This document shows, one piece after another, positions 13,059 through 32,968 of a stretch of DNA of 46,452 bases. The DNA is from a virus: positions 1 through 46,452 of the IMG/VR virus record IMGVR_UViG_3300009083_000003, one strand, 5' to 3'. Positions within the stretch are counted from its first letter, which is position 1; each line of letters opens with the position of its first letter. Both the position numbers and the translations under genes were made by a program. Under the pieces are notes generated by a model that saw only the letters and a list, made by a program, of their open reading frames with translations, did no database searches and was not told the DNA's origin.

Positions 13059-13451
13059 ATGACCACCAAGCTGCAAAGCTGCCAAGAATGCGGCGCGCCG
13101 ATCACTGGCGGCCGGATCGGTCAGGAGTTCTGCGCGAAGGAGTGCCGGCAGGCGTTCAACAATCGCCGGATGCAGCGCGGAGCCGAACTGTACGACCTGT
13201 TCCGCGCCCTGCGACGCGAGCGCGGCGCGGCGAAAGACCTCGCAATCTGGACCGCAATCTGCCGCCTCGAACTGAAATGGCAGACCGAGGATGAAGCAGC
13301 GCGACCCGGCCGGAAATCATACATGCCGCCGCGCAAAGCCCTTGCCAACCTGCTCGACAAAGGAAGCCTGCCGCGAGGCGAAGTCCTGGTGAAGCCGATC
13401 AACCGCGCCGCGAAATCGCCCATCCATCGCCAAATCGCCGCGCACGGTTAG
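13059..13451 (+). CDS. Zinc-motif phage protein, hypothetical
   Basis: A 130-aa protein whose N-terminus is a treble-clef-like zinc site: CQECGAPI, then GQEFCAKECRQAFNNRRMQR. The following helix (GAELYDLFRALRRERGAAKD) and a basic tail suggest nucleic-acid binding. This family is common in alphaproteobacterial prophages but has no assigned function that I know. AGGAG precedes ATG 13059. It ends by overlapping the tail-spike gene by four bases in a convergent arrangement. Confidence 0.8.
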   Translation: MTTKLQSCQECGAPITGGRIGQEFCAKECRQAFNNRRMQRGAELYDLFRALRRERGAAKDLAIWTAICRLELKWQTEDEAARPGRKSYMPPRKALANLLDKGSLPRGEVLVKPINRAAKSPIHRQIAAHG

Positions 13452-15778
13452 TTAGGCCAAGCGAGCGACAAGCCGCCTCCAATCCCCTGAGTAGCCAATT
13501 CTCGGGTCTTGACCCCGGCGATATGGGTTGTGTTGAAGATGCAGTATTTTTCACCTCCGCACTTGATCAAGGCGTTGTCAACCGCCAGAAAATCTGATTT
13601 GAAGGTCGGAAGCTCCTCGTCTCTGACGTACATGACGGCTTGCAGGTTCGTGCACATCGCGGTGAGGCCGTCAACAACTACGTTGACCGCCATGTTGACG
13701 GACCGCCCGCCAACATAGATCAGCCGCGCGTTTGTGTCAGTGTCGTCGTAGCCAAGCTGATTCACCACGCTGATATTCCGGAACACGAATAGACACTTCT
13801 GCTTGAGTGTGGCTCCCGGCGACAATCTGATAAGCCCGTACGCCAGATTGCCGTAGTGGATCACGAAGGTGATATTCTCCAACGTGAACACTCCACCGAG
13901 GAATTCCGACCCGTAAACTGCCGAACCGTTCGGATCGCCCGGAATCTGACGGATTATTGAGTTTCGAGCGCTGACATTTTTCCCAGCCAAGATCAGACCG
14001 CCGTCGAGAACGCAGTTGTCATAGAATATATTTTCAACGCACCCATGCATGTCGCCGGCACCGATGCCGTTGCTTGCGTTCCGAAGAGTAGCGTTGACGA
14101 TCCTGATATTTCGATTAGGGCCTGCTCCGACCTCTTCCCGTTGACCAAGGGCGATTGAATGCCGGCCGGCTGACGGCGAACCTCCATCGAACATAAAATC
14201 AGTACAACTATTTATCGATACGCCGTACATGCCTCCAGCAGTGGAGCTGTTGGAGCAAGAAACCCCATTAACTACCCCTCCGAAGCAGCGGTCAAATTCA
14301 AACGTGACATAGTATTTCGTACTGATCTCGACGTTGCTAACATGGACACCGCGCGCCCACAGCACGTAAATGATCGTCTCTGCTGTTCCGCCGGTGATCG
14401 TTAGGTCAGACATCTCGAACGAGATAGGGCTGACCTTGTACATCGAGGTGTCAGATGTACCGTAAAGATCGGAAGGCCTCCCGCATATCTGCACGTCGGT
14501 TGAGTTGGTAACGCTACTGGTAACAAAAAATTCCGCCTGCGTGTAATTACGAACTTGTCCTGGCCTGTTTGAATCAAAGTAGCTATTCGCCGCCGGCTTA
14601 AACGCGAGAAACAGGTCGTTCGGAGCAAGACCGTGAGCGCCGTTGAAAAAAGCATATCCACGCTCTGTACGCATGTACGCCGAAAGATTCGGAAGCGCGC
14701 TAATCGAACCATTAAACTGGAACTTTGCGGCAGCATTGCCGAAATTTAGAATCGTGTTTCCCTTTCCATCACCAGTAATTTTGATGGATGTAAGGCGCGG
14801 GTCCGGAGACGTGTCGATACGGTAGACCCCAGCGGGGAAGCGCAACCACTTCACCTCTGCTATCCCGAAGATTCGGCTTATCAAGCCACCTGCGTCAGTG
14901 ACCCCCGTAGGATCAACTCCCCACCAAGTAACGATGGCCGGCCCGTTATAGATGCGAACCCAGGCACCACTTGCGCCAGTGAGGTCGAATGACGGGGCGA
15001 CATATAGCCCCTGAGACAGATCGGCTGAAATCTTGGCGGAGAGATTCTGCCCTGACCATTTGAAGCTACCTTCGCGCCCACGTTCCACCAGCTCGACGGA
15101 TCGATAGGCAATAACATTGACGGGTAGAGCCGCCATTTCCGACCGGCTTATAACAACCGTGGACAGCCTGGACCGAAACAGAGAGGTCAAGTGCTGCTCG
15201 CCAACACTTGCGAGCGCCGGGATATTCAGCTGAGACGTCCGAGATGCCATCTCGACAATCGCTTCGGCCACCGACGCGAGCGTTTCGATTTCACCGGCTA
15301 TGCCGGCAAGGGCATTGATCTGATCGGCGCTGCCGCCTAAGCGGACCACGTCGCCGATCAGCCTAGCCAGTGCCTCGGGGTTGGCGGAAGCGGGGATAGT
15401 CACAGCGCGATCGAGCCGCTCGGATAGTTGCTGATCGCGCATTACACCCAGATCGAGCGCGTCTTCGATCGTCTCGGAGAAGAATGCACCTTGGTTTTCA
15501 AGGTCCATTTCTTGGACGAACGGCACATTTCGAACAATGGTGATCCGCTCGCCCACCGCCGGCGCTACCGAGAGCGTAACGTCTCCACCTGTTGCACTAC
15601 CGACACCAGACACCGCATAGCTGACGTTGAGCGCGAGCACGGTTTCCGCGCCACGGCTATCGGTCTGGATCACCTTGACATGGCCCGCATCCTTGATGCG
15701 GAACTCGTAGGGAAATGACTTGGTGACGCCATTGCCGTTATACGGCCCGGATCGTCGCGCTTCGCTACTGACGGTCAT
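13448..15778 (-). CDS. Tail spike / tail fibre with beta-helix
   Basis: A 776-aa receptor-binding protein. Residues 1-130 resemble the N-terminal virion-attachment domain of T7-like tail fibres (GPYNGNGVTKSFPYEFRIKD, VGERITIVRNVPFVQEMDL). A helical linker follows to about 200. From about 270 on the sequence has a pectate-lyase-like beginning (WWGVDPTGVTDAGGLI, WLRFPAGVYRID) and then parallel beta-helix repeats rich in Asn, Gly and Val. It should bind and perhaps cleave a host surface polysaccharide. It is the last gene of the second late block. The 5' end has a hairpin holding the Shine-Dalgarno in its loop. Confidence 0.88.
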   Translation of the reverse strand: MTVSSEARRSGPYNGNGVTKSFPYEFRIKDAGHVKVIQTDSRGAETVLALNVSYAVSGVGSATGGDVTLSVAPAVGERITIVRNVPFVQEMDLENQGAFFSETIEDALDLGVMRDQQLSERLDRAVTIPASANPEALARLIGDVVRLGGSADQINALAGIAGEIETLASVAEAIVEMASRTSQLNIPALASVGEQHLTSLFRSRLSTVVISRSEMAALPVNVIAYRSVELVERGREGSFKWSGQNLSAKISADLSQGLYVAPSFDLTGASGAWVRIYNGPAIVTWWGVDPTGVTDAGGLISRIFGIAEVKWLRFPAGVYRIDTSPDPRLTSIKITGDGKGNTILNFGNAAAKFQFNGSISALPNLSAYMRTERGYAFFNGAHGLAPNDLFLAFKPAANSYFDSNRPGQVRNYTQAEFFVTSSVTNSTDVQICGRPSDLYGTSDTSMYKVSPISFEMSDLTITGGTAETIIYVLWARGVHVSNVEISTKYYVTFEFDRCFGGVVNGVSCSNSSTAGGMYGVSINSCTDFMFDGGSPSAGRHSIALGQREEVGAGPNRNIRIVNATLRNASNGIGAGDMHGCVENIFYDNCVLDGGLILAGKNVSARNSIIRQIPGDPNGSAVYGSEFLGGVFTLENITFVIHYGNLAYGLIRLSPGATLKQKCLFVFRNISVVNQLGYDDTDTNARLIYVGGRSVNMAVNVVVDGLTAMCTNLQAVMYVRDEELPTFKSDFLAVDNALIKCGGEKYCIFNTTHIAGVKTRELATQGIGGGLSLAWPN

Positions 15779-15822: not shown

Positions 15823-18800
15823 TTACTTCTTAAATCGGCCCATCAGATATTCGAGCGGCGAGACGTCTTCCCCATCCGCCTGACGCCAACGCGCATCGAC
15901 AACGCGGTTGATCTGCGTCGCCGGCAGGCCGAGCGCGAGACCGGTCGCGCCGATCACCGACTTGACCAACGCCTTATCGACTTCGCCCTTGGCCGCCGCC
16001 TTCAGCGGCTTCGTCACCTCATCGGTGATGGAGCCATAGGCGCCGCCGCCGCCGTACCCTTGCAGCGGGCTTGCAACGTCCCGCACGAACGGCACGGTTG
16101 ACATGATCGAGAGCCCGGTTTGCTTCGCCAGAAACTTGAGCCACCCGTCATCCTCATCATCGCCCTTCGGCAATTGCCCGCGGATCGCCGCCGTCAGCAA
16201 CGCTTCGAGCGTGAACAGGAACGCCATATCGAGCGTCCAGGACAGCGCCTCTTGCGCCGACTTCAGGCTCACGCCCTCATCCTGCACCGTGCGGCTGGCC
16301 TTCGCCGTCCGCTCATAGGCCACGTTGAATTTCGCGAACATGTACGAGCCCAGCGTGGTGAAAAGGCGGACCACGTCGTTCTGCCGGGCGTTGCGCGTCA
16401 CCGAGCCGCGTTCGATCGCCGAGCGGTCCGCGAACAGACCAGACGACTGCGCCCGCTTCACGATCGCGTCGGCGTGTGCGATGGCCTTGGCCTCGTCGTT
16501 GCCGAACTTCTGCATGCCCTGCTCATAGCCGGCGATCCACGTCGGCACGTCGGCGGCGAAGAACTGGACCTTCGTCATCAGCCAGAACGACAGCGGGCCG
16601 ATGAACTCTTTCTTGATCTCGCCCCAGCGCGACGCCACCGGCCCGTTGCTGGAATCCGAGTAGAAGTCGAAGATGTCCTTGTTGAACGTCGTCTGCCGTG
16701 ACGCCATGAAGGGAGACTTTGCCGCGATGTCGGCGGCGACGCCGGCAGGGTTGGCAACCGTCTTGGCGATGCCGACCGCCATGTTCTTTTTTCCGACGAC
16801 GACCGCCGACTGCGAAACGCCGACGATCTGCATCGCGACGGTCGAGAAGTTGAAGGCCAGCTTTGCCGCAGTGAAGTTCGACTTCAGGACGCGCGCGGCG
16901 CGGCCGACGAAATCGGCCGACTTCAACTCGCCTTCCGCCACATCCTTCAGCCAAGTTTCGAGGGCGTCGAAATCCGGCTGCTTCCCGGCCTCAATGAACG
17001 AGGCGCGGATCCTGCCGTCTTGCAGGATGCGCCAGGAATTCGCGACCGCCTCGCTCAATTCGAGATCATAGATCACCTGATTGACGTGGCGGTGCATCAC
17101 CGAGATATCGAATTCGACGTCACGGCCCGACGACTGCGCGCGATCTTTGAGGTGCCCGTTCCGCGTCTGCGCTTTTCCGAACCGTCCAGCTTGCAGCGAC
17201 TTCGCGATTTCCTGCGTTTCATCGTCGCGCGCCAGCGAGGAAAGCCGCGGATCGTATTTGATCGGATAGTAGCCGCCGGCCAGCATCTTGCCGCCGATCT
17301 CGACCGGCGTCGCTTCGACCCATTGCGGTTCGACGCCGGTCACACGGCGTTCACGCGCCGCGATATCATTGCGGAACGACCCGATATAGTCCCACGCCGA
17401 CTGCACGAAAGAGGCGTCGCGCTCATCGAGCGTGGCAAGCACAACCTTGACCTGATCCGGCGTGAGCGAGCCGCGCACGCTCTGGTCTGTCAACCGCTGA
17501 TAGTTTCCGGCATTACCAGTGTTCAGCGCGACCGCGATCCGCTCCCACTTCGAGAGCGCATAGCCCAGCTCCGGGATGTGCTGACGGACGGCCATCTTGC
17601 GCCGCTCATCCTTCGAGTAGGCGGCATACAGCGTCTCAAGATCAGTCGCGGCCTGCTGCTTGCGGACCATCAGACGGTTCATCGCCGCATCGATCGGCCC
17701 CTTGATGCCCCGATACGCCGCGCCATCGTCAGCGAATCCGTCGATTTCGCGCAGCAGCGTCGACGCGTTCAGCACCAGGTCAAAGAACTGCCGCACAGCG
17801 TTCCGCGCGCCCTCGCCTTTGGTCGAGACGCGACCGGGCGGCCGCTTCTTCACGTTGGCGTCGAATGCGGCCACGATATCGGTCACGACCTCATCGAGCT
17901 TGCGATTGTTCTGTGCATCAATCAAATCGTCCCAGCGCAGAGCCATGTGCTCGAGATTTTTCAGCGTGTCGACGACGCCGCGCAATTCCTCGACACTCAG
18001 GGTTTTGTACGGCCTTCGTGCCGCGTTGTTCAAAACGGCTTCCGGGATCGCCAGTTCGTTTTCACGCCCTGCCGCAGTCATCGCCGCGACGAACGCATTG
18101 AGCGCCCCGCGCCGCCCCTCATCCGCCGCGCTTAAACGGCGGAAGTCATATTGTGTCAGAAGATCGTCGATCGTCCCGAGGTAATCGATCTGCGCGTCCG
18201 CACGCCGACCGGCCCCAGCGATCCGCTCGCGATGCGACGCTTTGCCCAGCTTGGAGACGAACCGTTCCGCCTTTTCGACCTCGTCAGCGACCTTCCGGGC
18301 CTCGGAATACAGCGCGTGGTTCAGCAGTTGCCGGCGCTTGGCATCGAGCAGCTTGGCGACATTCTCGTTGTAGCCGGCGAGATTTGAGACGCGGGTTTTC
18401 CCCTTCGCCTCATAGACCACGACATCGCTGTCGAGCAGGTTGTTCCGCCTGTCGATTGCCGCGTTGATCTGGTCAACCGTGGCGTCGCCCTTGGCCGCCC
18501 GCCGTGCCTGCGCTTCCATCCGCCGCGTCGCGTTCTGGAGCCACACGCCATCGCGCGCCAGCATCGCGCCGAGCCGTGCCGCCTCATCGGCCGCCTTGCG
18601 TTCCGCCGCCAGGAAGCGGTTCGCGTTCATCGCGTCGCGCGTCTTCATCCGGGCGATGGTCTGCCGCGCCGTCGCACGCGCTTCCTTTGCCGTCATCGCC
18701 TTTCCGGCTTCCGCGATCTCGACGATGGCTTTCAGCTCGGCGGCGATCCAGAGTCCACGCTTGTCGTTGTGGACGGCATCGAGCGCTGCCGCTTCGATCT

Positions 18801-21800
18801 CGCCGTCATGCAGAGCGTCGCCGTGCCGTTCGCGCATGACGCGATCGGTCTCCGCTTCGATCGCGTCGTTGCGCTTCGGCGCGCGCTCCATGGCTCGGAT
18901 CAACTCGTCACCGGAGCCGAAGCCGAACCAGCCGGCCGCCTCATCCGGGTCTAGACCGCCTTCGACCGTGTAGATGGTTCTCTTTCCGCGCGGGAGCGTT
19001 TTGAGCACGCCTTCGCCATAGCGATCGACCAGCACGTCTTTCGACAGCCGCATGTCCGGCAGTTCGGTCGGTTGATCTTCGCCAAGCCAGCGGCCGTTGC
19101 CCATCCATTCGAGTGCGCGGAAATACGGCAGCGCGTTGACCTGCGCCGCCATTTCATCGCGGACCTTGGCGCGTTCTTCCTTGAACCACCTCTCGCGCGC
19201 CCGCTTCACAGGAGCCATCGTCTCGCGAAGCAGCCGCGCCTTGGCCTCGTCTTCCGCCTGGGCGCGCAGCTTCATCAGCCCGCCGAATTGCTCCGGAGAC
19301 AGGCCGAGCTGTTCAGCCGTGGTGAACGTCGCGCCCGTGTCGCCGGCCTCCGCCTTGGCCTTGTCGATCTCCGCATCGGTCGCGATCATGCGATCGAACA
19401 CTGCGCGGATGTCGTCCGACATGTTGACGTTGAGCCCGGCGAGCCGGCGGTAGACCGAAATCAGCCACGCGCGGAATTTCTCGAAGGCCGAGCGCAATTC
19501 GATCGACGGCGCTTTGCCATCCATCAAATAAGCCTCGAAGGCCCGCGCCCACTGCTCCTGCAGCCCGGCGTCGACCGCGGCGTCCTTCATGACGTCGCCG
19601 GTTGTGCCCTGATCCAGCGCCGCAAGCACGTCTTCCGCGGTGATCTCGACGCCCTGCATCACGCGCGCGCCATCGGCGGCGACGGCTGCGGCGTTCGAAC
19701 GCCACCAATCACGGACCACGGTCATATCCGACGAGGCGCCAGCTTCGCCGCGCCCGGCCATGTCCTGCATGACGGTTAGAAAATAGTGGCCGCTTTCGTG
19801 GATCACGGTCGACAGATCGGCCGTCTCAAACAGGCGGATGATAGTGTCGCCGCTGCCGACGCCACCGGCCGGAAACTGGATCGCGCCGCGCGGACCGGGA
19901 CCGCCGGACTGGTAGAAAATCCGGCCGGCCGCCTTGACAACATCGGGGCGCGTTAATAGCTTTGCCTTCCGCTCTTGCCGAGATAAGCCTTCTTTTACTG
20001 CCGTTGAAGGCACTCCAGGGGAATTAGCCCCCGTACGGACTGGGACTTCGGCAAGGGCGGCTTCACTTTTCGCATAAACTTTGCCGGTTCTGGACAGCGC
20101 GACTGACAGGACCCGCCCCAACCGTTCGCGCGCGCTCTCGCTCGCGTTTCCGTCCATTGGCGTGATTGTCCTGATTTCCCCATCGCGGATACCGACAACG
20201 ATCGGCGATCCGATCTCGGTAGCGGCATCGATCACGACGTTCATGTTCCCGTCCGATCGCACGAACGCGAACATCGGATCGGCCAGCAGAGACGGCAAAT
20301 TCATCCAGACCGCAGCAGGAATATCGGGGTGCTTTGATTTCACCGCTCGAGCGACGATCGGGCTGAACAGGACTTTCCCTCGCCCGCCAGCTACCGCCGC
20401 CAGGACCGCGCTTTCGCGCAACACTTCCATTTCTCGCCGCGCCGTGCCGTCGAGAATGCGCTGAGCGTGGTTGCTCCAATCCTCCGCGATGCGATCGAAC
20501 AGCATTGTGCGGCCGTCCGGCCCTGTCGGGATGTCGCGGCCCTTGTTCGAGGCTTGCGCATACTGCCGGCCCTCCGCCTGATCAGCCTCGATCGCCGTGC
20601 GGATCACCGCGTCATCTTCATCAAGCGACACGCCGAGCCCGTTCAAATACGCTTCGATCTGGTCGAGATCGTCGGCGCGCATCGTGGCGGCGTCGGCTTC
20701 ACCGGCCCGCACCGACTCGCCTTTCAGCTCGCGATCGATATTCTCCCACAGCACCATCGTGATGTCGGGGACTTCGCGGGCTTCGTTGACCGCGTTTTTG
20801 TAATCCTGCACGACCGGGTCATCCGCCATGTACCCGGCCTCGATCGCGGCGCGCGCCACTTCGTCGGCGCTGAATTTCTTGCCGCCGCCGCCGAACATAT
20901 CGCGCACTGCCACCGTCGCGCCCTTACGCGCCAGCCGCAACGTCTTCTTGCCAGGACCGCGCTTGATCACTTCCGCATCGCGCGCCCGCAGCTCGCCACC
21001 ACGGTCGACGATCCCACCATGGTCGGCGATGAATTCCAGCAGCGTTCTGCGCTTGTCGAGCCCAACCGCCTTGCGAGCGCGCGCCTCGGCGAGCGTCCGC
21101 GTCAACGCATCGACGTTGCGAAGCTGCATCCCCTCGGGCAGATCGCCGCGGATCGCCGGCAATGGGTATTGCCGCATGAAATCCTCGGTGGTCATTCCGG
21201 AGCGTTCGGCCATCACTCGGTAGAACGCCGGATATAGCATCGCCTCGGTGGTGGCGACGTCGGTCGATCGGCCGGCGGCGCGCAGCCTCGAAACCATCTG
21301 GTCGTAGATTTCCTGCTCGTGCGATCGGAGCGCTTCGCTTTCCTGCCATACCTGTTCGGCAAGCTCATAGGCTTCTTGCAGAGCTTCTTGCGCCTTGGCA
21401 TTGAACTCCGCAGCTTCCCGAGACGTGAACTGATCCGGATCGAACCGCATGTTTTCCATGAGGAACGCGTCGTGTGCAGATCCAGCGATCCGCGCCGCGT
21501 AGGTCGCCGTCGGAATTTGCAGGTCTCCCCCGGCCGCAAGCGCGGCGTCGAGATCGTCCGCGCTCAAGCCATCCAGTTCGTCGACCAGCGCGCGCGGGTC
21601 GACGCCGATCCCTTGGAAATACTGCACGAACTGATCGGCCGGAACGTAGACGTTCTCGACCGGACCGTTCGCCGTCGCCGCCTCGACAAACTGGCGGAAT
21701 TTGTCAGGCATCCGGCCGCGCAGGATCGACGATTGCGCCTGCCCGCTCAATTCCTCGAACAGCGTCTTGCGATCGGTGGCGTCCTTGGCCTTGCGCACGC

Positions 21801-23088
21801 CATCCATGAGACGTGATCCGCCCATGCCCGCCACCTCGATCGGGGCGGTGGTGAATTCGGCCAAGCCTTCAAGCAGCACAGCGCCAAGGTCGAACTTCTG
21901 GCCGGCCGCCATCTGGGCGCCTGCTTCACCAGCCGACCCCATAGCGGCCTGCGTCAGCGCTTGCAGCACCATATTGCCGACGCGTGACTTAGCGAGCATC
22001 TGACCGGCAACACCGCCGGACAAGCCATCCATAGCGCCGACAACGACGCCACGGATCACACCGCGCTGCGCCGCCTCTTGCATCAACTGCGGATCGGAAA
22101 TGACCTTCATTGCGCCGGCCGGCGTCGAAACGTCGATCCCCTTTTCCTGGAAAAACTCAACCGGAGCGGTGCCGTATTCCTGCGCGCCGGACATCGATCC
22201 CATGGCTATCGCGCCAGCTTTCGAAGATCGCGTCACCAGACCAACGCCGGTCGCCGCCGCCATCATCGGAAGGCTTTCAATCGCAGTTTGAGTGACGAAC
22301 GAGACGAGCCCTGCAGGGTTGTTGCCGATGACGGCCATGTAGTCCATGAAGTCGCCGCCGGATTTGCTGACGCCGGCCCATGCGTCGCGGCTCTTGCTCG
22401 CGTCGGGCGTCAACGGTATTTCGCCGATCCGCTTGTTGATCTGTCCAACCGCTTGTTGAAACGCCGCCGCTGACTTTTGCTCGTCGATTCCGAGTGCGCT
22501 TGACAAACGAGATTGCGCAAACCGGGCTGCGGCAAATGGCAGATCGAGCGGCCCGGCCGCTTCTTTAACCGTCTCTCCAGTCGCCCTTCCGTCTCGCATC
22601 AGCTCAATCGAGCGCTGCTGATCTGCGAAGATTTCGCCGAAGCTCTTACCCTGATCATTCGACCGTTCGGCCGCCGAGCTGGCGAGAAACTGATTCCAGG
22701 ATTGAGGCACCCGCTTGACGCCACGGCTCATCGCGTTGCCCGCCGCGCCGAGACCGGCTTCAAACCACGACAGGCCAGTCAAATCATCCTTCGCCACGGC
22801 CGCGTTCTCAGGGTTGCGGAGCCATTCGGCGAGGCGCGGCGACGATGACAGGATCGTCTTGTTCTTTTCGCGCTCAATCGCCTGCTGGAAAACACTGCGG
22901 TACTCTTGGACCAGTGTTGCAGGCGGAACAGGGTTGCCCGTCGTCTTGGCGAACTCATGAGCGAGGTTCAGATCGCCGGCGGCCTCATCCGGCTTGGCGT
23001 CGATACTATCCATAACCACGTTGGCGGCAGCAATGTTGTGCTGCTGATTGGTTGCCTTCCACTTTTCGTAATCGGCGAGCGTGGTCAT
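15823..23088 (-). CDS. Giant internal virion / polyvalent protein with HExxH motif
   Basis: A 2,421-aa protein, first gene of the second late block. Visible elements: Ala/Gly-rich hydrophobic stretches at about 270-400 (LVSFVTQTAIESLPMMAAAT); a metallopeptidase-like motif TVIHESGHYFLTVMQDMAG at about 1095-1113; a long charged coiled-coil region around 1200-1700 (AKARLLRETMAPVKRARERW); and a C-terminal region with membrane-like helices (LDMAFLFTLEALLTAAI). Very large proteins in this position in podoviruses are ejected with the DNA and can cross or cut cell-envelope layers. Start ATG 23088 has AAGGGGA upstream; the TTG 18 bases further up is less likely. Confidence 0.85.
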   Translation of the reverse strand: MTTLADYEKWKATNQQHNIAAANVVMDSIDAKPDEAAGDLNLAHEFAKTTGNPVPPATLVQEYRSVFQQAIEREKNKTILSSSPRLAEWLRNPENAAVAKDDLTGLSWFEAGLGAAGNAMSRGVKRVPQSWNQFLASSAAERSNDQGKSFGEIFADQQRSIELMRDGRATGETVKEAAGPLDLPFAAARFAQSRLSSALGIDEQKSAAAFQQAVGQINKRIGEIPLTPDASKSRDAWAGVSKSGGDFMDYMAVIGNNPAGLVSFVTQTAIESLPMMAAATGVGLVTRSSKAGAIAMGSMSGAQEYGTAPVEFFQEKGIDVSTPAGAMKVISDPQLMQEAAQRGVIRGVVVGAMDGLSGGVAGQMLAKSRVGNMVLQALTQAAMGSAGEAGAQMAAGQKFDLGAVLLEGLAEFTTAPIEVAGMGGSRLMDGVRKAKDATDRKTLFEELSGQAQSSILRGRMPDKFRQFVEAATANGPVENVYVPADQFVQYFQGIGVDPRALVDELDGLSADDLDAALAAGGDLQIPTATYAARIAGSAHDAFLMENMRFDPDQFTSREAAEFNAKAQEALQEAYELAEQVWQESEALRSHEQEIYDQMVSRLRAAGRSTDVATTEAMLYPAFYRVMAERSGMTTEDFMRQYPLPAIRGDLPEGMQLRNVDALTRTLAEARARKAVGLDKRRTLLEFIADHGGIVDRGGELRARDAEVIKRGPGKKTLRLARKGATVAVRDMFGGGGKKFSADEVARAAIEAGYMADDPVVQDYKNAVNEAREVPDITMVLWENIDRELKGESVRAGEADAATMRADDLDQIEAYLNGLGVSLDEDDAVIRTAIEADQAEGRQYAQASNKGRDIPTGPDGRTMLFDRIAEDWSNHAQRILDGTARREMEVLRESAVLAAVAGGRGKVLFSPIVARAVKSKHPDIPAAVWMNLPSLLADPMFAFVRSDGNMNVVIDAATEIGSPIVVGIRDGEIRTITPMDGNASESARERLGRVLSVALSRTGKVYAKSEAALAEVPVRTGANSPGVPSTAVKEGLSRQERKAKLLTRPDVVKAAGRIFYQSGGPGPRGAIQFPAGGVGSGDTIIRLFETADLSTVIHESGHYFLTVMQDMAGRGEAGASSDMTVVRDWWRSNAAAVAADGARVMQGVEITAEDVLAALDQGTTGDVMKDAAVDAGLQEQWARAFEAYLMDGKAPSIELRSAFEKFRAWLISVYRRLAGLNVNMSDDIRAVFDRMIATDAEIDKAKAEAGDTGATFTTAEQLGLSPEQFGGLMKLRAQAEDEAKARLLRETMAPVKRARERWFKEERAKVRDEMAAQVNALPYFRALEWMGNGRWLGEDQPTELPDMRLSKDVLVDRYGEGVLKTLPRGKRTIYTVEGGLDPDEAAGWFGFGSGDELIRAMERAPKRNDAIEAETDRVMRERHGDALHDGEIEAAALDAVHNDKRGLWIAAELKAIVEIAEAGKAMTAKEARATARQTIARMKTRDAMNANRFLAAERKAADEAARLGAMLARDGVWLQNATRRMEAQARRAAKGDATVDQINAAIDRRNNLLDSDVVVYEAKGKTRVSNLAGYNENVAKLLDAKRRQLLNHALYSEARKVADEVEKAERFVSKLGKASHRERIAGAGRRADAQIDYLGTIDDLLTQYDFRRLSAADEGRRGALNAFVAAMTAAGRENELAIPEAVLNNAARRPYKTLSVEELRGVVDTLKNLEHMALRWDDLIDAQNNRKLDEVVTDIVAAFDANVKKRPPGRVSTKGEGARNAVRQFFDLVLNASTLLREIDGFADDGAAYRGIKGPIDAAMNRLMVRKQQAATDLETLYAAYSKDERRKMAVRQHIPELGYALSKWERIAVALNTGNAGNYQRLTDQSVRGSLTPDQVKVVLATLDERDASFVQSAWDYIGSFRNDIAARERRVTGVEPQWVEATPVEIGGKMLAGGYYPIKYDPRLSSLARDDETQEIAKSLQAGRFGKAQTRNGHLKDRAQSSGRDVEFDISVMHRHVNQVIYDLELSEAVANSWRILQDGRIRASFIEAGKQPDFDALETWLKDVAEGELKSADFVGRAARVLKSNFTAAKLAFNFSTVAMQIVGVSQSAVVVGKKNMAVGIAKTVANPAGVAADIAAKSPFMASRQTTFNKDIFDFYSDSSNGPVASRWGEIKKEFIGPLSFWLMTKVQFFAADVPTWIAGYEQGMQKFGNDEAKAIAHADAIVKRAQSSGLFADRSAIERGSVTRNARQNDVVRLFTTLGSYMFAKFNVAYERTAKASRTVQDEGVSLKSAQEALSWTLDMAFLFTLEALLTAAIRGQLPKGDDEDDGWLKFLAKQTGLSIMSTVPFVRDVASPLQGYGGGGAYGSITDEVTKPLKAAAKGEVDKALVKSVIGATGLALGLPATQINRVVDARWRQADGEDVSPLEYLMGRFKK

Positions 23089-23161
23089 GCGGCGATCCCC
23101 TTGCAAGATGGACCGCGAACATCAGCGCCGGATGGTTGCCAGATCAAACCCCGGCATGAGC

Positions 23162-27949: not shown

Positions 27950-30029
27950 CCGGCATAAGGGCGAGGATCGTCATCGGCAGCGGATCGAACTGCTTCACCC
28001 ACATCGAACCGTGCGTGTTCCAATCCCACTGCGGCGTCATGTGAATATCGCCGGTGTACAGTCCAATCGCCTCATTCCAACGCTCGGTGGCGCGCTGCCG
28101 ATATTCCGTCATTTGCGGACTGTCGCGATCGCCGTCCTTCGGACCGATAAAAATGCCACGCGTTTTCTCGACACGCATGGTCATTTCGCTGATCGACTTC
28201 TGGCGGCCCTGCACCGTGCCGAGCCCCTGCACCGTGCCGAGATCGAGATCGAGGGTTTGGATTGCCGCAGTGGTCGGCAGGCCAATGTGAGCCTTGGTCG
28301 CCGGGAACGGGAGCGTCACCTTTCCAAGCGCGACCACCAGATTGCGCACCACGTTGCCGTTCGCCAGCGCAACAACGGTCTGCCCTTCAAGGTGGTCTAG
28401 ACCGCTTATCACCTTCGCCGCAGGCCCCTCATAGGTCAGGCCGGAGTCGACGAAAAATGCATCTTCGACGCGCGCGAAAACGCGAGGGCGCAGCCGTTCG
28501 ATGTAGCGTTTTCGTTCGCCGCCGATCGTGCGGCTCAAAAGAAAATAGGGGGTGTCCTCGTTGCCTTCGGCGAGAACAATCACATCCTCGAAAATCGCAT
28601 CATCGTCCGGACCACTCTGATGCCGTGTCCAAGCCCACACGTCATGCTCTTTCATGTAGGTAAGCGAGACCAGCGAGCCATCGTCGAGGATCACCCACAC
28701 GATCGAATGCGGGGCCTGCGCATAGGCCCACGCCTTGATGTTTTTGTTCTCGAACAGATGCTTCGCAAGGATCGTCAGGTCGCGGCCATCGAACCCGTCC
28801 TTGGTCATATCGTAAGAAAAATCTCGAATGATGCCGCCGCGCGCCTGGGCGAATAGCAGTGTGTTTCCAACAACGATCGGCTGGACCCGCGCAGATCCCC
28901 GATATCCCTGCGGGTCGATCTTGATCGCGGAAGGCGCTATTGCATCAGATTGAGAACCGCCACTAACGATCCACTCCGATGCCGAGGTCAGCAGCATCAA
29001 GCCACGCAGCGCAATCATCGACCTGATTTCGTTCACCGTACGCGACCTTATCCGAAAGGTCACGGCATCGCTCGCCTTCGCAGGCCGCGCGTAACCAAAA
29101 TTCTCGTAATTCGCCGACTGCGATAGCCATACAGCTTGCGGATCATTCTTCGTCGAAGCGAAGGCGAGCCGCTGTTCGACGAAAGTTGCGCAGCGGGGGA
29201 AATTTCCGGTCCCTGTAAATGGATTCCTGTCTGACTGCGGCGTGTCAGCAAGATCGGGCACCAGATTTTCGTCGTCGAACGACAGTCCCGACGTGCCGCC
29301 GATGTATCCGAAGACCCCATTGTCATTTCGATAGATGATGTACCGTGCAGCGCCGGGAACCGCCGGCCATGAAACGCTGTTTTTGCCGCCTGCAATTGTG
29401 AGGTCGTTCACGACGGAAGCGGCCGGCGACGGAATGCTTTCTTCGCCCGTTTCATCCGATACCGCCGAAACTGCGTACGTGTAGTTCTTCGCGACATAGC
29501 CGGTCTGTCCGGCTGTATCGACCACCTTGCTCACAGTGGGAGCGCCCGGCGGGGTCATCTTCCGAGCAAACGTCACCACCTCCAACGTCCAATTGTTGTC
29601 AGCGAGCCGTGCGATTCTTCTGACAGCATAGCTCGGGTGGCAGAGATACATGACATCCGCTTCCTGGATCGATACCAGATCGATCAGATCACCGTGGGAA
29701 TACGGCGTCACGATCTCGTAGGCGACGCCGCCCGCCAGGATAAGGCCGCCGTCCCGGAAGAACCGGCAATAGCGGTCGCCGAGTTCGAGGCAATAGGACT
29801 GCGCGTCGCTGAACTGGAACGGGATCATCCGGCATTGGTGCGCGCTGTTCTTCACCACATTGACGAATTCCAGCCCAGCCCGATTGGACACCCCGCCGTG
29901 CGCATGAACGAAGACGTTCACCGCTGTCCGCAGGCCGGTCGTGAACTTTGCGAGGTCAACGCGAGCGGCGAGCGCCGGAGACAGCTCTCCTCCCGTAAAC
30001 GATGGCTGCATTGCGCGAAGCTCTGCCAT
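27930..30029 (-). CDS. Tail tubular protein B-like
   Basis: A 699-aa protein starting MAELRAMQPSFTGGELSPAL, the signature of the podoviral tail tube/stabilisation protein family (also NRAGLEFVNVVKNSAHQCRM, IPFQFSDAQSYCLELGDRYC). A fibronectin-III-like insert is visible near 185-240 (YTYAVSAVSDETGEESIPSP). It forms the distal tail tube (nozzle). It starts on a TGATG overlap with tail tube A, as in most phages of this type. Confidence 0.9.
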   Translation of the reverse strand: MAELRAMQPSFTGGELSPALAARVDLAKFTTGLRTAVNVFVHAHGGVSNRAGLEFVNVVKNSAHQCRMIPFQFSDAQSYCLELGDRYCRFFRDGGLILAGGVAYEIVTPYSHGDLIDLVSIQEADVMYLCHPSYAVRRIARLADNNWTLEVVTFARKMTPPGAPTVSKVVDTAGQTGYVAKNYTYAVSAVSDETGEESIPSPAASVVNDLTIAGGKNSVSWPAVPGAARYIIYRNDNGVFGYIGGTSGLSFDDENLVPDLADTPQSDRNPFTGTGNFPRCATFVEQRLAFASTKNDPQAVWLSQSANYENFGYARPAKASDAVTFRIRSRTVNEIRSMIALRGLMLLTSASEWIVSGGSQSDAIAPSAIKIDPQGYRGSARVQPIVVGNTLLFAQARGGIIRDFSYDMTKDGFDGRDLTILAKHLFENKNIKAWAYAQAPHSIVWVILDDGSLVSLTYMKEHDVWAWTRHQSGPDDDAIFEDVIVLAEGNEDTPYFLLSRTIGGERKRYIERLRPRVFARVEDAFFVDSGLTYEGPAAKVISGLDHLEGQTVVALANGNVVRNLVVALGKVTLPFPATKAHIGLPTTAAIQTLDLDLGTVQGLGTVQGRQKSISEMTMRVEKTRGIFIGPKDGDRDSPQMTEYRQRATERWNEAIGLYTGDIHMTPQWDWNTHGSMWVKQFDPLPMTILALMPDVTIGR

Positions 30030-30640
30030 CAGACCACACCGTCTCGCGATTGCACAAAGTCGCTCTCGTGATCAGATGTCTCCCTGACCTCATTCGCATC
30101 GGCCTCCTGCGCGTCAATTTTAGCCTGCTCGGCAATCTTCATCGCATCAGCGCGGATTTTGGGGTCGCGCGTCAGAGGCATAGCCAATCGTGCGGCCAGT
30201 CGCCACGCGAGCAGATCAACCACCAGCGGCGGCAATTTCGATGGATCGGTGAGCCGCGCAGTGATACGCGCGAAGGCCGGCGAAAGGTTGCAGTAGATCG
30301 TCTCCCCTTCGATCTCAAAGGGGTTCAGAACCTCTTCGTGGTGAGACTGGCGCACGGGATCGACAGTCGAATAAGCGGGCCTGAGCCACCTGACATGCAG
30401 GCAATCGACCGGTCGCTGATACGCTCGACCCCATGCCCTGGGCTTGTCGTTGGCGATTTCCGCCAGCGAAACCGTCCTGCCGGCGAACCGCCAAGGATAC
30501 GCCTGAAACATCAGATCGCGTTCGAATTCGAAGAATTGCTTGCACGCGCGTGCTTCTGCCGTTGGCTCCGTCAGCGCGGAAATATTCTCCTTGGCGAGGT
30601 TGGAGAGCGCCAAATTGCAGATCGAGACGATCGACGTCAC
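30029..30640 (-). CDS. Tail tubular protein A-like
   Basis: A 203-aa protein with ICNLALSNLAKENISALTEP, ACKQFFEFERDLMFQAYPWR and WGRAYQRPVDCLHVRWL, characteristic of tail tubular protein A, which joins the portal ring to the tail nozzle. Start is GTG 30640, overlapping the stop of the repeat-protein gene (GTGA). It sits directly before tail tube B. Confidence 0.88.
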   Translation of the reverse strand: MTSIVSICNLALSNLAKENISALTEPTAEARACKQFFEFERDLMFQAYPWRFAGRTVSLAEIANDKPRAWGRAYQRPVDCLHVRWLRPAYSTVDPVRQSHHEEVLNPFEIEGETIYCNLSPAFARITARLTDPSKLPPLVVDLLAWRLAARLAMPLTRDPKIRADAMKIAEQAKIDAQEADANEVRETSDHESDFVQSRDGVV

Positions 30641-30918
30641 GCCAAGACCCCACTGATTGCGCGAACGGGAATGACCAACTGATTGTTGTAGAGCTTGCGC
30701 GCATCAAGGATCAGCACCACGCCGAGCACCGGTTGATCGTTGTGAACCGCCTTGTCGGCTGTCAGGACATCGACACCGCGAACGCGCTGGTTGCCGACAA
30801 ATGTTGCGAGGGCGCCAGCGTCGACCACGCCGTGCACTGGCAAGCCGTTGAACATCGCCGTCCCGTCAGGAACGATCCGGATGCCCAACACGGGCTGTTC
30901 GTTGAATAGGCTTGCCAT
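30637..30918 (-). CDS. 18-residue-repeat virion-associated protein
   Basis: A 93-aa protein composed almost entirely of five repeats of exactly 18 residues with no gaps. Asn occurs at 6, 24, 43 (one off), 60 and 78; Pro-Val at 9-10, 27-28, 63-64, with Arg-Val 45-46 and Leu-Val 81-82; Gly at 12, 30, 48 and 66, Pro at 84. The unit is like NxQPVLGVxxxxDxxxxx, suggesting a small beta-repeat/solenoid. It is in the tail/head block between tail tube A and a head protein. Likely a minor structural protein. I do not know its family name. Confidence 0.8.
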   Translation of the reverse strand: MASLFNEQPVLGIRIVPDGTAMFNGLPVHGVVDAGALATFVGNQRVRGVDVLTADKAVHNDQPVLGVVLILDARKLYNNQLVIPVRAISGVLA

Positions 30919-30942
30919 TGCCGACCCGCGTCGATCAGGGAG

Positions 30943-30967
30943 GGAGGAAGGGCGCGAGCGCCCCTCC
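30943..30967. other. Intergenic hairpin in late block
   Basis: GGAG-GAA-GGGCGC-GA-GCGCCCCTCC forms a strong hairpin followed by GTTTAA on the + strand. On the transcribed - strand there is no T-run, so it may modulate the late mRNA or act as a + strand terminator against antisense transcription. Confidence 0.5.
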
Positions 30968-30977
30968 GTTTAATCGC

Positions 30978-31460
30978 TTACTCAGTGACGGGCTGCGGAG
31001 TGCCCGGCGCAACCCAATCGGGCTGATTAGCGCCGATCGCTTTCATCGCCTCCGCCGTGGTCTGCTGAACCGGCTCGGGAGCATCGGAGAACGGCGCAGG
31101 TTTGCTCGCTTCGACAAACGCGGCGATGATCTCGTGTGCGTCCTTCACCTTCTTGACCTCGTGACCGGCAATCTGCGAAGCGATCTTCCGCGCCTCGCCG
31201 ACGCTGAGGTTCTGCCAATCCGGCGGGACAACGATGGGCGCAGAGCCGCCGAGATTGTCGTCGGCCGGCTTCGAGCCGCCGACCGTTCCGTCACCGTCGT
31301 GATCGCCCTTCCCGCCGAACGCCTTGGCCGGATCAAGCTTCGCCCAGCTCGGGCGACGCTTCGCGTCATACCAGATGTCATCCGGAACGGAGAACTGGTC
31401 GCCGATCTCCCGAACGACGCCGCCGAAATAGCCGCGCGAAGTTGCAACGACCTTAGCCAT
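30978..31460 (-). CDS. Head/structural protein, hypothetical
   Basis: A 160-aa acidic protein. N-terminus (VVATSRGYFGGVVREIGDQF, VPDDIWYDAKRRPSWAKLDP) is of a type that follows the capsid genes in BPP-1-like podophages. A GDHDGDGTVGG stretch resembles an EF-hand calcium loop (Asp at 1, 3 and 5). The C-terminal half is helical with Pro-rich end. It overlaps the decoration-protein gene by eight bases. A minor head protein is likely; the exact role is unknown. Confidence 0.72.
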   Translation of the reverse strand: MAKVVATSRGYFGGVVREIGDQFSVPDDIWYDAKRRPSWAKLDPAKAFGGKGDHDGDGTVGGSKPADDNLGGSAPIVVPPDWQNLSVGEARKIASQIAGHEVKKVKDAHEIIAAFVEASKPAPFSDAPEPVQQTTAEAMKAIGANQPDWVAPGTPQPVTE

Positions 31461-31863
31461 TGGACTGATTCCCCATCGTGACGCCGGCCGTCACCTTGCC
31501 CATGGTTGGCGCGGTGCCGGTCACCGTGTAATTGAGCCGCAGGAACTGTTCGTCGGTTCCGCGCTGGATGAACTCGGGGGTAACGACCTTGCCCGCCTTG
31601 AGATCGGCAAGAACGACGGTCTGCGACCAGACCGTCTTCGCCGACGTGAAGCCGCTGTTGTCGTCGACCTGGAGCGCGATGCCGAGCGATGTGAGGTTGT
31701 TGAACGCCTCGGTGATCTGGATCAGCAATGGGATCGCTCTGCCCTTGCCGATGTCGCGCACAACCCCGGCCTTGATCGGGCCGAGATCGAGAATGTTGGT
31801 GCTCGCCGCAGTGGCGGTGATCGCCTGCTGATCGGAGAGCAAGTTCTGGTTGTCGAAAATCAT
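31453..31863 (-). CDS. Bbp16-like capsid decoration protein
   Basis: A 136-aa protein: MIFDNQNLLSDQQAITATAA, then KGRAIPLLIQITEAFNNLTS, LGIALQVDDNSGF and TGTAPTMGKVTAGVTMGNQS. This is the Bbp16 family named from Bordetella phage BPP-1, a trimeric cement protein on the capsid. It lies immediately downstream of the major capsid gene, where such genes normally are. Supports relationship of the virion module to BPP-1. Confidence 0.9.
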   Translation of the reverse strand: MIFDNQNLLSDQQAITATAASTNILDLGPIKAGVVRDIGKGRAIPLLIQITEAFNNLTSLGIALQVDDNSGFTSAKTVWSQTVVLADLKAGKVVTPEFIQRGTDEQFLRLNYTVTGTAPTMGKVTAGVTMGNQSNG

Positions 31864-31927: not shown

Positions 31928-32968
31928 TCAGAGCGTCACGGGCGGAACCAGCGCCTCAGTGTTCAGCAGCGCGTCGGTCATTCTGATGGGAATGCTGCGG
32001 TAGGTCGGGACGACCTTGCCCTCGACGTTCTCCGGCTTCAGTGCGGTGGCGTTCGCGTTCGCCGCAAGCAGCGCGCGGTCGCTGGACTGTGCGTCGAGCG
32101 TTTCGAGCACCTGACGATTCATGTAGATCGCCGTCCGGCCACCCTCCGCGCCCACGCCGTACACCGTGTACAGCCGATAGTACGCCTTTCGCAGAAGCGC
32201 CCACAGATCGACTGTTCCGGCCAGCATTTCGGACACGTCAATGTTCGCGATCCGCGCGCCGTGCCGGTAGTCCTTCACGAACGCGCCGATGTGCCATTCG
32301 AAGGTGGTGACCTTCGCGTAGTAGGGATCGCCGTTCGGATCGAGCACCTTCTCTTCTCCCTTGTCCATCACGACAACGCCGGCTTTGGTGCCCTTCGGAT
32401 AGAGCAGCGAGGTCGCATGATCCGCCCAGGTAACGAACCAGATCGACGTGTTGTCCGAGCCCGTGCCGCCGCCGTGGACAACTTGATTGGCGATGTTCGG
32501 CTTGCCGGGGTCGACGAGGCCGGTGTTGTACGCCGAGTATCGCGCCGACACGCCCTTGAACTTCTCCGGAGTGGTCGCGGTGTCGTGGTAGAAGAAGCCG
32601 GTCGCCATTTCCTGATTCATCGTCTCCAGGTACGGCGAACTATCGACCAGTCGGGCTTTCGCCGGATCGGGTGCCAGCTTGAGCAGGCGAACGTCGATCT
32701 CCGAGCGGGCTTCGAGGAAGCCCGTGCTGTCGTCGACCTGCTGCATCGTCGACTTGGACGCCTTGACGCCCTTGTACAGCCGGCCCCACTGCGCGGTCGG
32801 ATAGCCCGTTCGGATGGGATGCCGGTGCACGACATCCATGTTGCACTGGGTCGCGATCGCATCGTCGAGGATTGGGTTGTTCTGCTTGAGCAGTTCGATC
32901 ACCGTGCCCTCGGCCGAGCCCTTGTAGGCGTCGATGAGGGTCGGATAGGAGCTACCGATAATCGCCAT
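31928..32968 (-). CDS. Major capsid protein
   Basis: A 346-aa protein of the podoviral GP20/Bbp17-like major capsid group: IGSSYPTLIDAYKGSAEGTV, TQCNMDVVHRHPIRTGYPTA, KSTMQQVDDSTGFLEARSEI and a C-terminal domain with YGVGAEGGRTAIYMNRQVLE. Position between the scaffold and decoration genes confirms it. It forms the icosahedral shell with an HK97-like fold (family knowledge). No N-terminal delta domain or protease gene is seen; the scaffold is a separate gene. Confidence 0.92.
   Translation of the reverse strand: MAIIGSSYPTLIDAYKGSAEGTVIELLKQNNPILDDAIATQCNMDVVHRHPIRTGYPTAQWGRLYKGVKASKSTMQQVDDSTGFLEARSEIDVRLLKLAPDPAKARLVDSSPYLETMNQEMATGFFYHDTATTPEKFKGVSARYSAYNTGLVDPGKPNIANQVVHGGGTGSDNTSIWFVTWADHATSLLYPKGTKAGVVVMDKGEEKVLDPNGDPYYAKVTTFEWHIGAFVKDYRHGARIANIDVSEMLAGTVDLWALLRKAYYRLYTVYGVGAEGGRTAIYMNRQVLETLDAQSSDRALLAANANATALKPENVEGKVVPTYRSIPIRMTDALLNTEALVPPVTL

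What the first reader, a model, noticed from the sequence alone, without database searches (positions are those of the whole stretch)
30637..30918. Five exact 18-residue repeats in a 93-aa virion-block protein
Asn, Pro-Val and Gly recur every 18 residues without any gap over the full length. Exact-length repeats in a tiny protein suggest a miniature beta-solenoid or beta-propeller-like oligomer. DNA repeats are diverged, so the pattern is old and selected. It lies between head and tail genes and might be a head-tail adaptor or needle.
Basis: seen in the sequence. Interest (0 to 1): 0.52.

Follow-up and report, generated by a model that had tools for sequence, protein, structure and literature searches.

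The report
Five-unit anchor of phage surface spikes
A tiny phage protein made of five matching 18-residue units turns out to be a free-standing copy of a domain that many related phages of root-nodule-type bacteria use as the root of sugar-cutting or sugar-binding surface proteins, probably spikes on the phage head.

Summary
The 93-aa minus-strand gene (30637-30918) is five 18-residue units plus three residues (z 10.9; 0 of 20,000 shuffles), with diverged DNA. I found 53 distinct copies of this domain in phage and prophage DNA; where host titles exist they are Rhizobiales. All keep five units, none four or six (one is split by a frameshift). In 32 of 48 complete ORFs it is the N-terminal domain of a larger protein (over 130 aa) ending, where recognised, in an SGNH/GDSL esterase, lectin-like or fibre-like module; the window has one of a dozen or so free-standing forms. 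It sits in a variable slot between capsid/cement and tail-adaptor genes. All 18 phage records examined carry a separate, conserved tail-spike anchor. In Cobetia phage Carin-1, a structure-solved relative, the same slot holds the 'head spike base' gene. Best reading: a virion-surface anchor module, most likely of head spikes, not a head-tail adaptor or needle. Its fold is unresolved: AlphaFold gives a confident repeat of hairpin plus strand, but nothing in PDB or BFVD matches. The invariant count of five invites a bold, untested idea: one chain matching a fivefold capsid vertex.

The parts
30637..30918 (-). 93-aa five-unit repeat protein (stand-alone anchor domain)
30865..30918 (-). repeat unit 1 (residues 1-18)
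   Evidence: its start is the only part kept in chimeras L012 and L014
30811..30864 (-). repeat unit 2 (residues 19-36)
30757..30810 (-). repeat unit 3 (residues 37-54), the most divergent unit
30703..30756 (-). repeat unit 4 (residues 55-72)
30649..30702 (-). repeat unit 5 (residues 73-90); residues 91-93 and the stop follow at 30637-30648
30029..30640 (-). gp4-like tail/adaptor protein (phrog_394); its GTG start overlaps the stop of the repeat gene (GTGA)
30978..31460 (-). 160-aa upstream neighbour, no family match; part of the conserved gene order
31453..31863 (-). Bbp16-like capsid cement protein (PF21190)
31928..32968 (-). major capsid protein, GP7 family (epsilon15 / BPP-1 type)
15383..15778 (-). 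N-terminal anchor of the separate tail spike/fibre gene 13448-15778 (phrog_1640); shows that the tail-spike position is filled by another protein

Best explanation
The protein is a free-standing copy of a compact, five-unit virion-anchor domain. In most relatives the same domain forms the N-terminus of a surface protein whose C-terminus is an SGNH/GDSL esterase, a lectin-like or a fibre-like module. Mechanism: the five-unit domain docks on the capsid surface of these epsilon15/BPP-1-type podophages, most likely as the base or root of a head spike, and carries or recruits a module that binds or trims host surface polysaccharide; in the window it serves alone as a decoration/base protein, or holds a partner not encoded next to it. 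Shown: the repeat, its conservation at five units, the fusions, the gene slot, the separate tail spike. Inferred: presence in the virion, capsid rather than tail location, carbohydrate function.
For: 53 distinct domain copies among 175 loci including the window; of 48 closed ORFs 32 are over 130 aa, 2 are 101-130 aa and 14 are at most 100 aa (one of these is the frameshifted L171). Eleven fused proteins were scanned: esterase families in 5 (L013, L018, L032, L046, L047), LamG in 1 (L045), phrog_5939 'tail' in 2 (L007, L050), phrog_10356 'virion structural, head and packaging' in 1 (L034), unknown-function family in 1 (L052), none in 1 (L039). In L003 the stand-alone gene is followed directly by a GDSL esterase gene. 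Gene slot: of 18 bacterial-genome loci found by the domain alone, 16 have the same capsid protein upstream; over all copies 48 of 53 (inflated because many loci were fetched by the capsid gene). The tail spike has its own anchor in 18 of 18 near-complete records, of which 10 hold the five-unit domain. Carin-1, whose capsid protein is 45% identical, has 'head spike base' gp40 (PDB 8cjz 'Spike Base Protein') and gp39 in this slot; gp39 and the L034 fusion match the same head-structural family phrog_10356.
Against: No sequence kinship with the Carin-1 base (hhalign probability 0.24%). PHROGs calls some C-terminal families 'tail', and SGNH modules are commonly tail-spike modules (recalled). Two of 53 copies lie outside the capsid block, beside lysis/replication genes (L115, L132). 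The window and several relatives have no attached or adjacent effector module, so the 'anchor' has no visible cargo there. The gp39/L034 similarity is short (31 residues, E 3e-4 for one comparison). No virion proteomics.
Confidence: 0.6

Rival explanations
1. It is the anchor of a second set of tail fibres or tail spikes rather than head spikes: the domain docks on the tail tube or adaptor and carries a depolymerase/esterase towards the cell.
For: Adjacent to the phrog_394 tail gene, with overlapping stop and start; some C-terminal families are annotated 'tail'; L015 has a phrog_11393 tail-fibre-like gene next to it.
Against: All 18 near-complete records have one separate tail spike with its own conserved anchor; the slot follows the capsid and cement genes; a structure-solved relative has its head spike base there.
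Confidence: 0.22
2. A capsid cement/decoration protein in its own right: many copies coat the shell, and fused modules are passengers.
For: Stand-alone forms cluster on the tree (10 of 11 in one weakly supported group, support 88/47, together with one fused and one short-tailed form) and are under purifying selection; other small proteins of about 100 aa occupy the slot in L036 and L101.
Against: A Bbp16-type cement gene is already present and many relatives also have a gp10-like one; most copies are fused to modules of 200-800 aa, which is unlikely on hundreds of sites.
Confidence: 0.12
3. Head-tail adaptor, needle or other connector part.
For: Position between head and tail genes.
Against: Adaptor, nozzle and portal are separate conserved genes; the slot is filled by unrelated proteins in other phages; fusions to esterases.
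Confidence: 0.03

Closest known systems
Cobetia phage Carin-1 gp40 'head spike base' with gp39 (PDB 8cjz)
   Same: Same capsid type (capsid protein 45% identical), same slot between cement and connector genes, similar size (92 aa); followed by a gene that shares phrog_10356 with one fused member.
   Different: No detectable sequence similarity, no 18-residue repeat seen; base and second protein are separate genes, whereas here the domain is usually fused.
RcGTA head spike: base Rcc01079 and fibre Rcc01080 (PMC7296036, passages read)
   Same: Alphaproteobacterial particle with head spikes that bind capsule polysaccharide; the fibre N-terminus carries a repeated (iso)leucine pattern that contacts five base subunits as a 'five-point star'.
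   Different: The base is a jelly-roll pentamer; the star is 9 residues, not 93; no sequence relation was shown.
Left-handed beta-helix / hexapeptide-repeat solenoids (pattern recalled)
   Same: 18 residues per unit and a hydrophobic residue every 6.
   Different: No match to any solved structure at E <= 0.001, though this common fold should be easy to find; the predicted strand pattern is hairpin plus strand.
phrog_5070 and phrog_7964 (unknown function)
   Same: Weak match over about 68-86 residues of several members (best E 5.8e-4), so perhaps remote kin.
   Different: Longer families (182 and 269 aa); not followed to their members.

Membership tests
Head spike base (Carin-1 gp40 / RcGTA Rcc01079) | Gene in the capsid block between cement and connector genes | tested here: met
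Head spike base (Carin-1 gp40 / RcGTA Rcc01079) | Sequence similarity to the solved base proteins | tested here: not met
   hhalign A4 against Carin-1 gp40: probability 0.24%; profile A4 against all PDB sequences: only a chance hit, E 0.29
Head spike base (Carin-1 gp40 / RcGTA Rcc01079) | Jelly-roll pentamer on capsid pentons | not testable with these tools
   no multimer prediction; fold searches gave no confident match
Head spike base (Carin-1 gp40 / RcGTA Rcc01079) | Carries a polysaccharide-binding or -modifying fibre | tested here: inconclusive
   esterase, LamG or fibre-like families as fused C-terminal modules in relatives, but none in or beside the window gene, and no activity shown
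Podovirus head-tail adaptor (gp4-like, phrog_394) | Match to the adaptor family | tested here: not met
   0 PHROGs families for P0001 at E <= 0.1; the next gene matches phrog_394 at 1.7e-48
Tail spike with phrog_1640-type anchor | phrog_1640-type N-terminus | tested here: not met
   that domain is in another gene, 13448-15778
Beta-solenoid (left-handed beta-helix) | 18-residue turn with an aliphatic residue every 6 | tested here: met
   15 of 15 hydrophobic; only nominal support once the 18-periodicity is kept
Beta-solenoid (left-handed beta-helix) | Fold match to known beta-helices | tested here: inconclusive
   no PDB match at E <= 0.001; best VIA Z 2.1

The most novel reading that the evidence does not exclude
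The domain is a symmetry matcher: five pseudo-identical 18-residue units in one chain form a closed, pseudo-fivefold star or ring that plugs a fivefold capsid vertex and roots a single spike there, a large folded counterpart of the five-point star at the root of the RcGTA head fibre. This would explain why the unit number is five in every one of 53 distinct copies, although repeat numbers usually drift.
Probability: 0.18. Interest if true: 0.8.

Novelty: new variant of a known kind. Interest (0 to 1): 0.5.

Why it matters
It defines a previously unassigned virion-anchor domain (no Pfam match above its cut-off, no PHROGs match for the window protein), common in epsilon15-type prophages of Rhizobium and relatives, with interchangeable esterase, lectin-like or fibre modules. 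If it roots head spikes, it gives a handle on how these prophages meet the exopolysaccharide of nodulating bacteria, and a small module for display on phage heads. If the fivefold idea is right, it is a neat natural solution to the mismatch between one fibre and a fivefold vertex.

Tried and rejected
Head-tail adaptor and needle: rejected, those roles have other genes. Annotated families: none for the window protein (a Pfam Asp_protease_2 hit at E 0.084, below cut-off, taken as chance). Phage records: no tblastn hit with the window protein; two diverged members at E <= 10 gave only hits that look like chance. PDB sequences: nothing. Folds: Foldseek PDB and BFVD, no match at E <= 0.001; VIA best Z 2.1, rmsd 3.3-3.4 A, 59 residues, to the knotted protein Q9PR55; PMC9278004 (passages) describes that torus knot; taken as no evidence. 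Phage_T7_tail (PF03906): over its cut-off in 0 of 18 records, E <= 0.001 in 4. Homology of the L036 102-aa slot protein to Carin-1 gp40: none. First genome-contig scan with a 4-row alignment found nothing; the 34-row alignment found 18 loci. The 6-residue rhythm is only weakly independent of the 18-residue one (2,899 of 100,000). Ring against solenoid could not be decided: the tools gave no coordinates.

Papers: PMC7296036, PMC13317679, PMC8310070, PMC9278004 and PMC10783043 were read as found passages only; PMC10218006 and PMC10386132 gave no passages for my terms; the Carin-1 cryo-EM paper (d'Acapito et al. 2023) is known only through its citation in PMC13317679. I found no paper naming this domain in the search listings; that library lacks most subscription journals.

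Full report
What is there. The gene at 30637-30918 (minus strand) encodes 93 residues that fall into five 18-residue units and a three-residue tail. A permutation test finds period 18 at z 10.9; 0 of 20,000 shuffles reach it at that or any other period from 5 to 39. The named residues are mostly but not strictly repeated (Val 5 of 5, Asn and Gly 4 of 5, Pro 3 of 5). The units share 17-28 of 54 bases, so the duplication is old. The frame is real: relatives conserve it with dN well below dS (L001/L002 0.045 against 0.42), and the following gene starts inside its stop codon (GTGA at 30637-30640).

Neighbourhood. The window is a virus record of 46,452 bases. In the direction of transcription the order is portal, scaffold/protease-like, GP7-type major capsid protein, Bbp16-type cement, a 160-aa protein without a family, the repeat gene, a phrog_394 tail/adaptor protein, a nozzle-like tail protein, then internal virion proteins. 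This is the epsilon15/BPP-1 arrangement. A tail spike/fibre gene with a phrog_1640 N-terminus lies far downstream at 13448-15778.

Relatives. Starting from three close homologues, I fetched loci by the domain, by the capsid protein and by the tail protein and scanned all ORFs with profiles made here. Among 175 loci including the window there are 53 distinct copies of the domain. Fifty-two cover the whole five-unit profile; the last (L171) is split between two frames. Aligned over their first 85 residues, the longest internal gap is two residues, and no copy shows more than five units; a single-unit model recognises five units above 3 bits in 41 of 53, four in 11 and three in 1, the missing ones being weak rather than deleted. 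Unit i of one phage resembles unit i of others (0.49-0.62) more than it resembles other units (0.19-0.41), so units are neither shuffled nor homogenised. Where organism names exist, hosts are Rhizobiales: Rhizobium, Mesorhizobium, Phyllobacterium and a Hyphomicrobiaceae MAG.

Architecture. Of 48 copies in closed ORFs, 14 are at most 100 aa (including the broken L171), 2 are 101-130 aa and 32 are longer, up to 889 aa. Eleven fused proteins were scanned: five carry SGNH/GDSL-esterase families, one a LamG domain, two match phrog_5939 ('tail'), one phrog_10356 ('virion structural, head'), one an unknown-function family, one nothing. L132 is a further esterase fusion. In L003 the stand-alone gene is followed by a separate GDSL esterase gene; in the window and in several other stand-alone cases no such gene is adjacent. 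Stand-alone forms mostly fall in one weakly supported group (10 of 11, with one fused and one short-tailed member inside; 88/47), with at least four label changes on the best tree. L012 and L014, and by eye L069, keep only the first unit in front of another sequence. In L036 and L101 unrelated proteins of about 100 aa fill the same slot. The slot is thus a place where surface modules are exchanged (inference).

Head or tail. Sixteen of the 18 genomic loci found through the domain alone have the same capsid gene upstream. All 18 near-complete records tested carry a separate tail spike with one conserved anchor (49-63% identity to the window's), whether or not they have the repeat domain (10 of 18 have it, two have the one-unit form). 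Carin-1, a Cobetia podophage with a 45% identical capsid protein, has its 'head spike base' gp40 in this slot, and PDB 8cjz lists it as 'Spike Base Protein'. [quoted passage not shown] gp39 shares phrog_10356 with one fused member of the present family. Our domain is not a detectable homologue of gp40. So this is similarity of position and probable role, not membership. Against a head position stand the 'tail' labels of some C-terminal families and two copies outside the capsid block, L115 and L132.

Structure. AlphaFold with 34 and then 46 sequences gives the same repeating pattern, pLDDT 78.9 then 83.2, pTM 0.65 then 0.67: two short strands around the Asn-x turn, then a five-residue strand, in each unit. 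The short strands (residues 4-5 and 8-9) are placed symmetrically around residues 6-7, as in a tight hairpin (inference). No PDB or BFVD structure matches with confidence. Beta-solenoid, trimer-forming repeat and closed ring all remain open.

Mechanism. Most likely the domain is the root of a surface spike, by analogy on the head; the variable part binds or de-acylates host polysaccharide (inference). The invariant number of five in 53 copies is the most curious fact. A testable explanation is that one chain offers five equivalent contacts to a fivefold vertex, as the short star of RcGTA does. Nothing here proves it, and a functional length constraint on a solenoid would give the same count.

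Verdict. Observation confirmed, interpretation partly supported: virion block and regular beta repeat yes, adaptor or needle no. It is a new variant of a known kind of part, a phage surface-protein anchor, with an open and interesting structural question.

Noticed in passing
L034:5306-8470: Two paralogous proteins in tandem, both starting with the five-unit domain but with different C-terminal modules (head-structural phrog_10356 in the first).
   Followed up: partly
L115:8001-8282 and L132:7932-9482: Five-unit domain outside the capsid block: next to an endolysin/tail-lysozyme-like gene (L115) and between a primase and an endolysin gene as an esterase fusion (L132), so the domain moves between phage contexts.
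   Followed up: partly
L012:7983-8453, L014:6496-6717, L069:1318-1752: Chimeric slot proteins that keep only repeat unit 1 (or a look-alike, L069) before another sequence; unit 1 alone may be the docking element.
   Followed up: partly
window 30978-31460: 160-aa neighbour without family match; its relatives in many loci keep similar N- and C-terminal motifs around a linker of variable length.
   Followed up: no
window 30029-31460: The gp10-like (PF21628-type) gene that many relatives carry in this region was not detected in the window (tblastn E <= 1e-4).
   Followed up: partly
window 15823-23106: Very long ORF of 2427 aa matching phrog_9880 (unknown function), probably a giant internal virion protein.
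   Followed up: no
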